Positions 32,426 to 46,776 of a stretch of DNA of 56,437 bases are shown one piece after another. Position numbers and translations under genes: made by a program. The DNA is from Giesbergeria sp. (GTDB lineage: Bacteria; Pseudomonadota; Gammaproteobacteria; Burkholderiales; Burkholderiaceae_C), in the NCBI RefSeq assembly GCF_028686475.1, contig NZ_JAQUCA010000020.1, positions 1 through 56,437 of the forward strand, in the 5' to 3' direction. Below the pieces are notes generated by a model. The model was not told the DNA's origin. It saw nothing but the letters and a program-made list of their open reading frames with translations, and ran no database searches. Each line of letters starts with the position of its first letter. The stretch's first letter is position 1.

Positions 32426-32480
32426 ACGGTTGAATAAACACCTAGCATCCTCAAATACAGTTCCACTTTTTCGCAAGCAC

Positions 32481-32487
32481 AAAGGAG
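32481..32487 (+). promoter_or_regulatory. Displaced Shine-Dalgarno site of clpA
   Basis: AAAGGAG lies 10 bases before the left end of the IscB-type element. If the element is removed, the site would stand 14 bases before the clpA ATG (11 before a TTG). With the insertion it is almost 900 bases away and serves nothing visible. Confidence 0.5.
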
Positions 32488-32497
32488 TTCACGTCAA

Positions 32498-32805
32498 TTA
32501 CCCCATCCTGAAGGATGGGGCTTGAAGCCGAAAGGATTTAAGCCGGGTTGACCAGGGAAAGCGGTAGCCAATCCGCTACGTTAACAACAGGTCGTTCAGA
32601 CGCACCAGCAAATGCTTCCTCAGTTTGCTGCTCTGCAAGGTTTTGATCATGCTGGGCCAAGGTAAAAGCCCGAAGGTTGAAACCGCAGCTTGTAAAAGCT
32701 GGAGCCGGTTGCCAACATTCCCGAGGGGAGCGACATCGCAAGATGTCCGTCACTAGGCCCGTAAGGGCTGACCGCTGGAAAGACAGCTTATTTTTGGAGA
32801 GATAG
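32498..32805 (+). ncRNA. Omega-RNA-like scaffold upstream of mini-iscB
   Basis: The non-coding DNA upstream of the mini-iscB has the expected place and look of an omega RNA. It contains the left-end hairpin, a GACATC-GCAA-GATGTC stem with a GNRA loop (32732-32747), the invariant CGTCACTAGGCCC (from 32748), and a GCCC-GTAA-GGGC stem. The second element shares this architecture with compensatory changes. Known IscB omega RNAs carry the guide at the 5' end, read from flanking DNA just outside the left end. Here that would be the clpS-clpA spacer. An additional ~100-base segment near 32550-32660 is absent from the second copy. Confidence 0.7.
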
Positions 32806-33379
32806 GTGGCAGTTTTTGTGTTGAATTCCCAAGGCAAGGCATTGATGCCCTGCACCGAAAAGCGCGCCCGGCTGCTGCTGGCACGTGGTCGGGCGCGGGT
32901 GCATCGCCTTGTGCCGATGGTGATTCGACTCACAGACCGTGCAGCGGATTCGTGCGCTTTGCAGCCACTGCGCTTGAAACTGGACCCCGGCAGCAAAACG
33001 TTAATCCATCGCGGTAAGCAAATTTCTGAAGCCTTAACCGCTCGCCGCCAAATGCGCCGTAAGCGTGTGCATGGTTTTGGCACTGGCGATATGGTGCGCC
33101 CCGAGGTGCCCTCGGGGGTGAAGGCTGGCATCCACATTGGACGGGTGGCCGTGCGGGCCAGCGGCTCTTTCAACATCCAAAGCTACCAAGATGGTCAATC
33201 TATCGTGGTGCAAGGCATTAGCCACAAACATTGCCGCGTGATTCAGCGTGCTGATGGTTATGGCTATTTCTTCAACCGGGCCAACAACACAGGACGTGAG
33301 CAGGCAAGGCCCAAAGCAAGGAACGCTGCGCGTTCCGCGCTCTACCTCCCCGGCATGAATGCCGAGGTTTCACGCGCAA
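32498..33379 (+). mobile_element. IscB-type IS200/IS605-related element (non-autonomous)
   Basis: The 882-base element begins with a hairpin CCCCATCC-TGAA-GGATGGGG at its left end. Its right end carries GGAACGC/GCGTTCC and CGGCAT/ATGCCG hairpins and finishes GGTTTCACGCGCAA. The same ends occur around a second element at 46445-46772. It has no tnpA gene. It is preceded by GTCAA and followed by ATTGATGA (the clpA start). Inside are an omega-RNA-like scaffold and a shortened iscB ORF. Boundaries are set by comparing the two copies. Confidence 0.85.
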
Positions 33380-33384
33380 ATTGA
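32806..33384 (+). pseudogene. iscB: Mini-IscB: PLMP domain, bridge helix and C-terminal domain only
   Basis: The 192-codon ORF starts at GTG 32806 (GGAGAG upstream). Residues 1-45 are the IscB PLMP domain (MAVFVLNSQGKALMPC). Residues 55-65 are the start of RuvC-I (LRLKLDPGSKT, catalytic Asp60 kept). Then comes a bridge-helix-like HRGKQISEALTARRQMRRKR. Residue 88 on is the IscB C-terminal region (VHGFGTGDMVRPEVPSG, GISHKHCRVIQRADGYGYFF). The rest of RuvC-I, RuvC-II, HNH and RuvC-III are missing, compared with 400-500 residues for full IscB. Both deletions kept the frame. The last ~35 codons read through the element's right end, and the stop overlaps clpA's ATG (TGATG). It cannot be a nuclease. 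Confidence 0.85.
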
Positions 33385-35738
33385 TGATTGCCCAAGAACT
33401 GGAAGTCAGCTTGCACATGGCCTTTGTCGAGGCCCGCCAGCAACGCCACGAATTTATTACCGTGGAGCATCTGTTGCTCGCACTGCTCGATAACCCCAGC
33501 GCCGCCGAGGTATTGCGTGCCTGTTCGGCCAATATGGACGATCTGCGCGCCGCGCTGATCCACTTTATCAAAGACAACACGCCCCAAGTGGCCGGTAACG
33601 ACGAGGTCGATACCCAACCCACGCTGGGCTTTCAGCGCGTGATTCAGCGCGCCATCATGCACGTCCAATCCACTGGCAACGGCAAAAAAGAAGTCAACGG
33701 TGCCAATGTGCTGGTGGCTATTTTTGGCGAGAAAGACTCGCACGCCGTGTATTACCTGCACCAACAGGGGGTCACGCGGCTGGATGTGGTCAACTTTATT
33801 GCCCACGGCATCAAAAAGAGCGAGCCGCCCGAGCCAGCAAAAAACCCCGAAGGCAATGCCCCCGAAGGTGAAGAAGCCGCCGCCGCCGAGCGCAACGAAA
33901 AAGCCTCGCCGCTAGAGCTGTACACGCAAAACCTCAACCAGTTGGCCAAAGACGGCAAAATTGACCCCCTCATTGGCCGCCATTTTGAAGTCGAGCGCAC
34001 GATCCAAATTCTGTGCCGTCGGCGCAAAAACAACCCGCTGTTGGTGGGCGAGGCCGGTGTGGGCAAAACCGCGATTGCCGAAGGCTTGGCTTGGCGCATC
34101 ACACAAAAAGACGTGCCCGAAATTTTGGCCGAAGCCACCGTTTATTCTTTGGACATGGGCGCATTGCTGGCCGGTACCAAATACCGGGGTGATTTTGAAC
34201 AGCGCCTGAAAGCGGTGCTCAAATCGCTCAAAGACAAGCCACACGCCATCTTGTTCATTGATGAAATCCACACCCTGATTGGTGCCGGTGCGGCTTCGGG
34301 TGGCACTATGGATGCTTCCAATTTGCTTAAACCAGCGCTCAGTTCGGGCGTGCTGAAATGTATTGGGGCTACCACCTTTACCGAATACCGGGGCATTTTT
34401 GAAAAAGATGCTGCCCTGTCGCGGCGCTTCCAAAAGGTGGATGTGGTCGAGCCTAGCGTGGCCGAGACGGTGGACATCCTCAAGGGCCTCAAATCGCGCT
34501 TTGAAGAACACCACAGCGTCAAATACGCGGCAGCCGCCCTGCAAGCCGCGGCAGAACTCAGCGCCAAATACATCAACGACCGCCATTTGCCCGACAAGGC
34601 AATTGACGTGATTGACGAGGCCGGTGCCGCCCAGCGTATTTTGGTGGCCAGCAAGCGCAAGAAAACCATTGGCAAAACCGAGATTGAAGAAATCGTCGCC
34701 AAAATTGCGCGCATTCCGCCTGCCAATGTCTCCAACGACGACCGGGGCAAGCTGCAAGTGCTAGAGCGCGACCTGAAAAGCGTGGTGTTCGGCCAAGACA
34801 AAGCCTTGGAAGTGCTGGCCTCGAGCGTCAAAATGGCGCGCTCGGGTTTGGGCAAGCCCGACAAACCGATTGGTGCCTTCTTGTTCAGCGGCCCCACTGG
34901 TGTCGGCAAAACCGAAGCCGCGCGACAATTGGCCTACATTTTGGGCATTGAGCTAATCCGCTTTGATATGTCCGAATACATGGAGCGCCACGCCGTTAGC
35001 CGCCTGATTGGCGCGCCGCCCGGCTATGTCGGCTTTGACCAAGGTGGCTTGCTGACCGAAGCCATCACCAAAAAGCCGCATTCGGTGCTGCTGCTCGATG
35101 AAATCGAAAAGGCGCACCCCGACATCTTCAACGTGTTGTTGCAGGTGATGGACCACGGCACCCTGACCGACAACAACGGGCGCAAGGCCGATTTCCGCAA
35201 TGTCATCATCGTCATGACCACCAATGCGGGTGCCGAAACCATGAACAAGGCCACGATTGGCTTTACCACCCAACGCGAAGCCGGTGATGAAATGGCCGAC
35301 ATCAAGCGCCTGTTTACACCCGAGTTCCGCAACCGCTTAGATGCCATCGTCGGCTTTAAGGCACTCGATGCGCAAATCATCTTGCGCGTGGTGGACAAAT
35401 TCTTGCTGCAACTCGAAACCCAACTGGCCGAGAAGAAGGTAGAAGTGACCTTCACCGACGCGCTGCGCCAGCACTTGGCCAAGAAAGGTTTTGATCCGCT
35501 GATGGGCGCGCGTCCGATGCAGCGCCTGATCCAAGACACCATTCGCCGCGCCTTGGCCGACGAATTGTTGTTTGGTCGCTTAACCGATGGTGGCCGCCTG
35601 ACCGTGGATGTGGAACACAAAAAAGACGACAAGGGCGCAGAAACTTCCGAAGTGAAGCTCGATATCCAACCCCTGTCGAAAAAAGAGCGCGCCGCTAAGG
35701 CCGAACCGGCAGAGCCGGAAGAGGCCACCGCACGCTAA
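33384..35738 (+). CDS. clpA: ATP-dependent Clp protease ATPase subunit ClpA
   Basis: A 784-residue AAA+ unfoldase that feeds substrates to ClpP. The N domain starts MIAQELEVSLHMAFVEARQQ. The first Walker A is GEAGVGKTAIAEG (near residue 222), with Walker B LFIDEIHTLIGAG. The second Walker A is GPTGVGKTEAARQ (near 505), with LLLDEIEKAHPD. The ClpP-binding IGF loop is in NKATIGFTTQRE. A charged C-terminal tail follows (KKERAAKAEPAEPEEATAR). The ATG at 33384 lies 4 bases after the element's right end, so its native ribosome-binding site is displaced; translation may depend on coupling to the mini-iscB ORF. Confidence 0.96.
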   Translation: MIAQELEVSLHMAFVEARQQRHEFITVEHLLLALLDNPSAAEVLRACSANMDDLRAALIHFIKDNTPQVAGNDEVDTQPTLGFQRVIQRAIMHVQSTGNGKKEVNGANVLVAIFGEKDSHAVYYLHQQGVTRLDVVNFIAHGIKKSEPPEPAKNPEGNAPEGEEAAAAERNEKASPLELYTQNLNQLAKDGKIDPLIGRHFEVERTIQILCRRRKNNPLLVGEAGVGKTAIAEGLAWRITQKDVPEILAEATVYSLDMGALLAGTKYRGDFEQRLKAVLKSLKDKPHAILFIDEIHTLIGAGAASGGTMDASNLLKPALSSGVLKCIGATTFTEYRGIFEKDAALSRRFQKVDVVEPSVAETVDILKGLKSRFEEHHSVKYAAAALQAAAELSAKYINDRHLPDKAIDVIDEAGAAQRILVASKRKKTIGKTEIEEIVAKIARIPPANVSNDDRGKLQVLERDLKSVVFGQDKALEVLASSVKMARSGLGKPDKPIGAFLFSGPTGVGKTEAARQLAYILGIELIRFDMSEYMERHAVSRLIGAPPGYVGFDQGGLLTEAITKKPHSVLLLDEIEKAHPDIFNVLLQVMDHGTLTDNNGRKADFRNVIIVMTTNAGAETMNKATIGFTTQREAGDEMADIKRLFTPEFRNRLDAIVGFKALDAQIILRVVDKFLLQLETQLAEKKVEVTFTDALRQHLAKKGFDPLMGARPMQRLIQDTIRRALADELLFGRLTDGGRLTVDVEHKKDDKGAETSEVKLDIQPLSKKERAAKAEPAEPEEATAR

Positions 35739-44061: not shown

Positions 44062-44089
44062 GTTCACTGCCGTACAGGCAGTCAAAAAA
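44062..44089 (+). repeat. Single orphan repeat matching the type I-F CRISPR consensus
   Basis: GTTCACTGCCGTACAGGCAG (44062-44081) is identical to the first 20 bases of the E. coli/Yersinia-type I-F CRISPR repeat, including the CTGCC-GTACA-GGCAG hairpin cut by Cas6f. The last eight bases (TCAAAAAA) diverge from the usual CTTAGAAA. No second repeat or cas gene is visible in this window, so it is a relic or stand-alone copy. Confidence 0.6.
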
Positions 44090-44148: not shown

Positions 44149-44224
44149 TGGTGGGACGTGCGGGGGTCGAACCCACGACAAACGGATTAAAAGTCCGCTG
44201 CTCTACCAACTGAGCTAACGTCCC
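44149..44224 (-). tRNA. tRNA-Lys (anticodon TTT)
   Basis: A 76-base tRNA with encoded CCA. The acceptor GGGACGT pairs with ACGTCCC, the anticodon loop is CTTTTAA (anticodon TTT), and the T arm is CGTGGGTTCGACCCCCG-like. It closely resembles E. coli tRNA-Lys. Confidence 0.96.
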
Positions 44225-46439: not shown

Positions 46440-46444
46440 GTCAA

Positions 46445-46640
46445 CTACCCCGACCTGAAGGTCGGAACTTGGAAGGCGAAAGCTTTGCAAGTTCTGGTTG
46501 CAGACAAGCGACAGGGTAAGCACGAAACGGTTCGGAACCGCCCGCAAGGGCAAGCCGGCACGCAACATGGTCGAGGGGATCCGCACCGCAAGGTGCGCGT
46601 CACTAGGCCCTTACGGGCAGAGCCGCAAGGCCCAGCAGAG
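46445..46640 (+). ncRNA. Omega-RNA-like scaffold without a protein gene
   Basis: This carries the same order of elements as 32498-32805: the left-end hairpin, a conserved CGAGGGGA, a CGCACC-GCAA-GGTGCG stem (46582-46597), CGTCACTAGGCCC (from 46598), and a GCCC-TTAC-GGGC stem. The GNRA-capped stem differs from the other copy at three base pairs, all compensated. The 3' end is approximate. If transcribed, the guide would come from the 3' end of the chemoreceptor gene. Any protein partner would have to act in trans. Confidence 0.6.
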
Positions 46641-46772
46641 GTGAAAAGCCTCGCACTAATTTCTGTCAACCGGGCTATTGAATGGACGTGAGCAGGTACC
46701 GGCCCAAAGCAAGGAACGCGATGCGTTCCGCGCTCTACCTCCCCGGCATGAATGCCGAGGTTTCACGCGCAA
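46445..46772 (+). mobile_element. ORF-less IscB-derived element carrying only the RNA scaffold
   Basis: 328 bases bounded like the element at 32498-33379. The left end has the hairpin CCGACC-TGAA-GGTCGG; the right end has GGAACGC/GCGTTCC and CGGCAT/ATGCCG hairpins and ends GGTTTCACGCGCAA. It is preceded by GTCAA and followed by CCTGATGA (the rraA start). The stretch TCAACCGGGC...GGACGTGAGCAGG is shared with the 3' part of the mini-iscB, so it was derived by deletion of the ORF. It is non-autonomous. Confidence 0.82.
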
Positions 46773-46776
46773 CCTG

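What the first reader, a model, noticed from the sequence alone, without database searches (positions are those of the whole stretch)
32806..33384. In-frame mini-IscB lacking HNH and most of RuvC, between clpS and clpA
The ORF joins the IscB PLMP domain, the first RuvC-I strand (Asp60 kept), the bridge helix and the IscB C-terminal region. About 250-300 residues with HNH, RuvC-II and RuvC-III are gone. Both deletions kept the frame, and no stop interrupts the 192 codons. Known relatives are IsrB (no HNH) and IshB (HNH, no RuvC); I know of no described form like this. It keeps several of the parts that contact omega RNA, so a nuclease-dead RNA-binding product is possible, in analogy to nuclease-dead TnpB repressors (TldR). 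Plain decay is the simpler explanation.
Basis: partly seen in the sequence, partly recalled or inferred. Interest (0 to 1): 0.85.

Follow-up and report, generated by a model that had tools for sequence, protein, structure and literature searches.

The report
Gutted IscB element at clpA's start
A jumping element that once carried an RNA-guided DNA cutter landed exactly at the start codon of the clpA gene and later lost the cutting parts; what remains is most likely a passive, still-translated lead-in to clpA rather than a new kind of mini-enzyme.

Summary
Window 32806-33384(+) is an IscB gene with two in-frame internal deletions (90 and 768 nt) that removed the rest of RuvC, all of HNH and half of the bridge helix. 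Its HEARO omega-RNA is intact. It is one copy of a multi-copy element; the same genome holds full-length copies, other deleted copies and short non-autonomous ones. No relative with both deletions appeared in the searches that could show it. Only five substitutions are strictly private to this copy, so selection cannot be judged. A TldR-like repressor is not supported.

A stronger pattern lies outside the given coordinates. The element sits exactly between clpA's ribosome-binding site and start codon. In this genome 20 of 21 recognised right ends are followed by ATGA; at 10 of 11 sites checkable in relatives that ATG is the native start. The iscB frame stops on it (TGATG). A distant IscB lineage shares the target. 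Internal deletions are mostly in frame (7 of 9). I favour a translated leader for clpA; the coupling itself is inferred.

The parts
32493..33383 (+). whole HEARO/IscB element, internally deleted copy (891 nt), left end GTCAATTACCCC, right end ...CGCGCAAATTG
   Evidence: Aligned ends of 12 copies; length 891; empty site in relatives
32493..32736 (+). HEARO (omega-RNA) RF02033, full model 1-211
   Evidence: 110.3 bits against a gathering score of 83
32467..32492 (+). left flank ending AAAGGAGTTCAC: native clpA ribosome-binding site and spacer, now 891 nt from its start codon; by position also the presumed omega-RNA guide (inferred)
   Evidence: Empty sites in relatives; guide role from IscB/IsrB biology, not tested
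32806..33384 (+). mini-IscB ORF, 192 aa: PLMP domain, first RuvC-I strand with Asp60, half bridge helix, C-terminal (TAM-side) region
32999..33000 (+). junction of deletion 1 (90 nt, in frame, no evident direct repeat)
33052..33060 (+). junction of deletion 2 (768 nt, in frame) inside the direct repeat ATGCGCCGT that flanks the lost stretch in copy L033
33382..33386 (+). TGATG: stop codon of mini-IscB (33382-33384) overlapping the start codon of clpA (33384-33386)
   Evidence: Sequence; same overlap at other copies
33384..33387 (+). target/TAM ATGA = native start codon of clpA plus one base
   Evidence: Empty sites
33384..35738 (+). clpA, 784 aa, intact
   Evidence: Pfam Clp_N, AAA, AAA_2, ClpB_D2-small
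46440..46776 (+). second element of the same end family in the window: 337-nt non-autonomous copy (left end tentative) with a 31-codon ORF, at the start codon of an rraA-like gene (46777)
   Evidence: PF03737 RraA-like; no HEARO match at gathering score here

Best explanation
This is a damaged copy of a HEARO/IscB transposable element that inserted precisely between the ribosome-binding site and the start codon of clpA. Two internal deletions, one between short direct repeats, removed the nuclease domains. The remaining protein is most likely inert. What still matters is the reading frame: ribosomes that translate the 192-codon remnant stop at TGA and can restart on the overlapping ATG of clpA, so the remnant works as a translated leader for clpA. 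The omega-RNA is complete and could still be used in trans by the full-length IscB copies of the same cell against element-free clpS-clpA sites. Shown: identity, deletions, exact insertion site, stop-start overlap, intact omega-RNA, recurrence at other copies. Inferred: translational coupling, selection on the frame, use of the omega-RNA in trans.
For: Empty clpA sites in relatives read ...caaaggagttcac|ATGATTGCC and the filled site is that with the element inside. In this genome 20 of 21 recognised right ends are followed by ATGA (union; one search's pattern required TRATGA, one search's did not and gave 19 of 20), and in all 20 the upstream frame is open for at least 25 codons and its stop overlaps the ATG. 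Of 18 sites queried against three relatives 11 found an ortholog, and 10 of the 11 have the native start codon there. A distant lineage (G438) shows ATGA after 18 of 18 right ends, found with a pattern that did not ask for it. The window has 293 ATGA sites, of which at most about 17 could be gene starts; the binomial for 10 of 11 is 4.5e-12, or 4e-7 with 54 of 293. Internal deletions of iscB copies are in frame in 7 of 9 cases, chance 1/3, P = 0.008. clpA is intact although its own ribosome-binding site is now 891 nt away.
Against: No expression data. The right end carries GAGG 16 nt before the ATG; my Shine-Dalgarno score rates it -6.3 kcal/mol at all 15 sites scored, better than the native mean of -3.5 (clpA native -7.5), so direct initiation without coupling is possible. 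In two other copies of this genome at such sites (L036 before ddl, and divergent L037) the iscB frame is broken upstream, so an unbroken leader is not strictly needed. In lineage G438 the iscB stop lies 27 nt before the host ATG, so overlap is not general, yet deletions there are also often in frame. Single copies in G512 and G496 end on no start codon. Two short copies in Giesbergeria anulus run in frame into the host gene and one stops early. Two in-frame deletions in one copy have a chance probability of 1/9.
Confidence: 0.45

Rival explanations
1. Plain decay: the copy is a dead IscB gene caught early, and the open frame is luck plus recency. clpA is started independently, for example from the GAGG in the right end.
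For: No second genome with both deletions; only 5 strictly private substitutions, 3 N and 2 S; direct repeat at junction 2; other copies in the same genome carry other deletions, one out of frame; GAGG in the right end.
Against: Excess of in-frame rearrangements over two lineages (7 of 9 deletions, P = 0.008); displaced native ribosome-binding site with clpA intact.
Confidence: 0.4
2. A functional nuclease-dead mini-IscB that binds omega-RNA and acts as an RNA-guided binder or repressor (TldR-like).
For: PLMP part, Asp60 and the C-terminal TAM-side region are kept and the omega-RNA beside it is complete.
Against: Rest of RuvC, half of the bridge helix and all of HNH are gone; in DtIsrB truncation of the PLMP domain or the beta-7 motif abolished nicking, read by its authors as a need for the RuvC-TI-PLMP scaffold (PMC9581776, passages read). 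No relative with the same architecture. AlphaFold2 mean pLDDT 38.8, pTM 0.26, residues 45-192 below 50 (7-row alignment).
Confidence: 0.04
3. Non-autonomous element kept by full-length IscB in trans: its intact omega-RNA guides sister IscB proteins to cut element-free clpS-clpA alleles, so the copy is retained without its own protein. Compatible with the leader view.
For: Intact HEARO RNA, four sister copies with open frames of 483-495 codons in the genome, and ATGA beside the presumed guide; DtIsrB has an NTGA TAM (PMC9581776, passages read).
Against: No activity data; the TAM of this IscB was not tested; of three Y1 transposase matches in the genome none lies beside an iscB copy.
Confidence: 0.3

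Closest known systems
IscB / HEARO elements (OMEGA; NCBIfam guided_IscB, Rfam RF02033)
   Same: PLMP domain, RuvC-I Asp, C-terminal region, HEARO RNA directly upstream, defined ends, ATGA on the 3' side
   Different: HNH, RuvC-II, RuvC-III and half of the bridge helix are deleted; nuclease function cannot remain
IsrB (nickase without HNH, about 350 aa; PMC9581776, passages)
   Same: No HNH; PLMP and TAM-side domain present; NTGA-type motif
   Different: IsrB keeps a complete RuvC; this does not. It is nested among full-length IscB copies, hence a deletion product, not an IsrB
IshB (HNH without RuvC; recalled)
   Same: Reduced IscB relative
   Different: HNH is absent here
TldR-type nuclease-dead TnpB repressors (recalled)
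   Same: Idea of a nuclease-dead guide-RNA protein
   Different: TldRs keep their fold and are conserved beside regulated genes (recalled); this copy has lost domains and no second one was found
Non-autonomous IS200/605-like derivatives (MITE/PATE type; recalled)
   Same: Keeps both ends and the omega-RNA, lacks a working gene
   Different: Still carries a 192-codon open frame ending on the host start codon

Membership tests
IscB | PLMP / RRXRR N-terminal domain | tested here: met
   PF14239 79.7 bits; PDB IscB residues 2-65
IscB | Complete RuvC (I, II, III) | tested here: not met
   Only the first strand with Asp60 remains
IscB | HNH domain | tested here: not met
   Inside the 768-nt deletion
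IscB | Arginine-rich bridge helix | tested here: not met
   Cut after QMRR, half kept
IscB | Over NCBIfam guided_IscB cut-off | tested here: not met
   77.7 bits against 175
HEARO element | HEARO RNA upstream of the ORF | tested here: met
   RF02033 110.3 bits, model 1-211
HEARO element | Defined ends and empty sites | tested here: met
IsrB | Complete RuvC without HNH | tested here: not met
   RuvC-II and -III deleted
IshB | HNH without RuvC | tested here: not met
   No HNH
TldR-like repressor | Conserved across genomes with kept fold | tested here: not met
   No second copy with both deletions; poor predicted fold
TldR-like repressor | Guide RNA directs binding to a promoter | not testable with these tools
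   Needs RNA and binding data

The most novel reading that the evidence does not exclude
HEARO/IscB elements of this kind are start-codon specialists. They insert between ribosome-binding site and ATGA start codon and keep the host gene alive by handing ribosomes over from their own ORF (TGATG overlap) or from a short leader in the small copies. Deleted IscBs such as this one are then selected, through the host gene, to stay in frame and become permanent leaders; the kept PLMP part might even tune that leader's translation by binding its own omega-RNA end.
Probability: 0.35. Interest if true: 0.68.

Novelty: new member of a known kind. Interest (0 to 1): 0.42.

Why it matters
As a protein the mini-IscB is probably nothing new. 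The site is the interesting part: a family of IscB elements found mostly at start codons, with the element's stop codon laid over the host's start, offers a simple reason why insertions in front of genes such as clpA, ruvA, ddl and a tRNA synthetase gene are tolerated, and why damaged IscB copies keep their frame without any IscB function. It warns against reading every in-frame mini-IscB as a new effector. I saw no description of this in the listings of the searches named under Tried and rejected, but I recall that the original HEARO report (2009, not held) mentions ATGA/GTGA integration sites, so the target motif itself may be known.

Tried and rejected
Functional mini-IscB: sought the same deletions by protein search in 26 genus genomes, own included (5 of 26 match, none but the own copy over both junctions), and in the species collection (24 loci, none showing both deletions; the tool says records of the own or a very near genome may be left out). 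One search covered only a strict right-end pattern in 399 family genomes (hits in the own genome alone; it drew 4 of the 25 other genus genomes), so it says little about the deletion. (100 order, 185 class genomes) used the IscB profile; their matches were not all examined for this deletion.

dN/dS: abandoned, 5 strictly private substitutions are too few (eleven copies compared, divergent L037 left out). Elsewhere this copy is a mosaic of variants shared with other copies, so its age is not fixed.

An idea that this copy had gained a better start codon came from misreading the alignment: the codon before the GTG changed, not the GTG. Dropped.

Shine-Dalgarno comparison: native sites are often weak and the element end scores uniformly because of one GAGG; this does not favour coupling and is listed as evidence against.

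Structure prediction uninformative outside the PLMP part; no fold search was made.

Start-codon count by ORF length is a weak criterion: 95 of 293 ATGA sites of the window open 90 codons or more by themselves. The ortholog test is the stronger one.

In-frame test: only gaps between BLAST pieces were classified. In G438 I aligned 11 of 19 loci, chosen for irregular lengths or stops; small gaps inside pieces (L207, L209, L211, L036, L037 and others) were not classified. The idea arose before the count was made.

Literature: searches were seen as listings with abstract starts; none shows start-codon targeting or translational coupling by IscB elements. PMC9755519, PMC13180657 and PMC9581776 were seen as passages. 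The 2009 HEARO paper is not held.

Rows dropped or against: the C63 right end (no ATGA, near a contig end); contig-end copies C41 and C47:75513 not queried for orthologs; one weak row (L156) left out; one of 11 orthologs (L103/L145) did not agree; at the rraA-like site the native leader is missing beside the element, and for two sites (L117, L138) no left end was located, so only the gene start was compared. Seven of the loci outside the own genome scanned gave no right-end motif (L012, L020, L079, L088, L089, L091, L092).

On rechecking, I lowered the best explanation from 0.5 to 0.45 because, and corrected the G438 stop-to-ATG distance to 27 nt.

Full report
What is there. The ORF at 32806-33384(+) is real and open over 192 codons. 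Its first 65 residues are the IscB PLMP region and the RuvC-I strand with Asp60; residues 66-85 are the approach to and first half of the bridge helix; residues 86-192 are the IscB C-terminal part. This follows from alignment with six full-length relatives, Pfam RRXRR, the guided_IscB model, matched below its cut-off, and solved IscB chains. Compared with the full-length copy L031 it lacks 90 nt and 768 nt. The larger deletion lies between two copies of ATGCGCCGT as seen in L033, the pattern expected of slippage; the smaller has no evident repeat.

It is one copy of a mobile element. The same genome (G000, 3.39 Mb, 65 contigs) has four relatives with open frames of 483-495 codons, a 386-codon copy with a different in-frame deletion (318 nt), a copy with an out-of-frame deletion (388 nt, L036) and a more divergent copy whose frame is broken near the end (L037). 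There are also short copies with the same right end and an open frame of 25 to 43 codons there. Aligned ends of 12 copies and empty sites in relatives place this element at 32493-33383. HEARO RNA RF02033 matches over its whole length at 32493-32736 with 110.3 bits. Of three Y1 transposase matches in the genome none lies beside an iscB copy; what mobilises these elements is unknown. Named relatives include Giesbergeria anulus, an uncultured Simplicispira, Variovorax, Comamonas, Macromonas, a record labelled Pantoea sp. 18069 and a Neisseriales MAG.

The insertion site. In genus relatives the clpS-clpA junction reads ...aaaggagttcac|ATGATTGCC. Here the element lies exactly at the bar: the native ribosome-binding site is now 891 nt upstream, and the iscB stop codon TGA shares its A with the ATG of clpA (TGATG, 33382-33386). 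clpA itself is intact.

This is close to a rule for the family. Right ends were searched in the own genome in two ways: 18 hits, pattern including TRATGA; 20 hits, no ATGA asked for, 19 of them followed by it. The union is 21 ends, 20 followed by ATGA. In all 20 the upstream frame is open for 25 to 495 codons and its stop overlaps that ATG. Fifteen of the 20 open ORFs of 90 codons or more; this alone is weak, since 95 of 293 ATGA sites of the window do so too. For 18 of the 20 I queried three relatives; 11 found an ortholog, and at 10 of these 11 the ATG is the native start codon. By Pfam (ten proteins, nine with a family) the downstream genes include clpA, an rraA-like gene, a D-Ala-D-Ala ligase gene (ddl), a type II secretion protein G gene, a SPOR protein gene, a 3-oxoacyl-ACP synthase III gene (fabH), ruvA, a glutathione S-transferase gene and a class I W/Y tRNA synthetase gene. 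Outside this genome 21 further right ends were found, all followed by ATGA; 18 had the stop-start overlap, two ran in frame into the gene, one stopped earlier, and five of the 21 open only 9-30 codons; seven loci had no such motif. In G475 three of three copies end on the start of an ORF, while single copies in G512 and G496 do not.

An independent lineage agrees on the target, not on the overlap. G438, another family of the order, carries about 20 IscB matches with a different right end (GCGGAATTTCT). All 18 distinct ends seen in 19 loci were followed by ATGA, and 15 of 18 open ORFs of 90 codons or more; by recall of their sequences some look like lepB, lolC, ntrC and serC. There the iscB stop lies 27 nt before the ATG. 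The window has 293 ATGA sites on both strands and 54 greedily called ORFs, of which 17 have an in-frame ATGA within the first 40 codons. Ten of 11 at starts has a binomial probability of 4.5e-12 with 17/293 and 4e-7 if every gene start were ATGA; the base rate comes from this window only. Whether the bias is target choice or selection after insertion cannot be told. An ATGA target agrees with the NTGA motif reported for DtIsrB (PMC9581776, passages read).

Does the frame matter? Recency predicts an open frame, and so does dependence of the host gene on translation through the element. Only 5 substitutions in 576 nt are strictly private to this copy, none a stop, which fits recency but fixes no age. 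Over both lineages 7 of 9 internal deletions, or 8 of 11 with two duplications, keep the frame; by chance one third would (P about 0.008). That sample is small, partly selected, was counted after the idea arose, and includes one deletion between repeats that lie in the same frame. Frame-broken copies L036 (before ddl) and L037 show that an unbroken frame is not indispensable, and a GAGG in the right end might start clpA directly. I hold the leader explanation at a little under one half.

Does the protein do anything? Nothing found speaks for it. No second copy with this architecture was seen, the fold prediction is poor outside about residues 1-44 (shallow alignment), and in DtIsrB truncating the PLMP domain or the beta-7 motif abolished nicking (PMC9581776, passages read). 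The one hint in favour is that in DtIsrB the PLMP domain contacts the terminal omega-RNA hairpin that holds the ORF's own Shine-Dalgarno sequence; a PLMP-bearing remnant could in principle tune its own and clpA's translation. I give that little weight.

Verdict. The exact start-codon placement with stop-start overlap is the part worth following.

Noticed in passing
46440-46776(+): A second, 337-nt non-autonomous element (left end tentative) with the same right end and a 31-codon ORF, at the start codon of an rraA-like gene (46777).
   Followed up: partly
L038-L046 (own genome): In 7 of the 9 short copies printed there, AAGGA is followed 5 nt later by an in-frame ATG or GTG inside the right-end hairpin, where iscB-bearing copies have no such start codon: possibly a gained start for a short leader peptide.
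   Followed up: partly
L099, L018 (Giesbergeria anulus): Right ends without the stop codon, so the element's tail frame runs in frame into the host gene (possible N-terminal extension).
   Followed up: no
44062-44089(+): Single CRISPR-DR4-like match (37.3 bits, cut-off 35), about 60 nt from a tRNA at 44152-44224(-).
   Followed up: no
L197 (G438:C22:467500-471800): An IscB copy with an in-frame tandem duplication of 894 nt and a 757-codon open frame.
   Followed up: no
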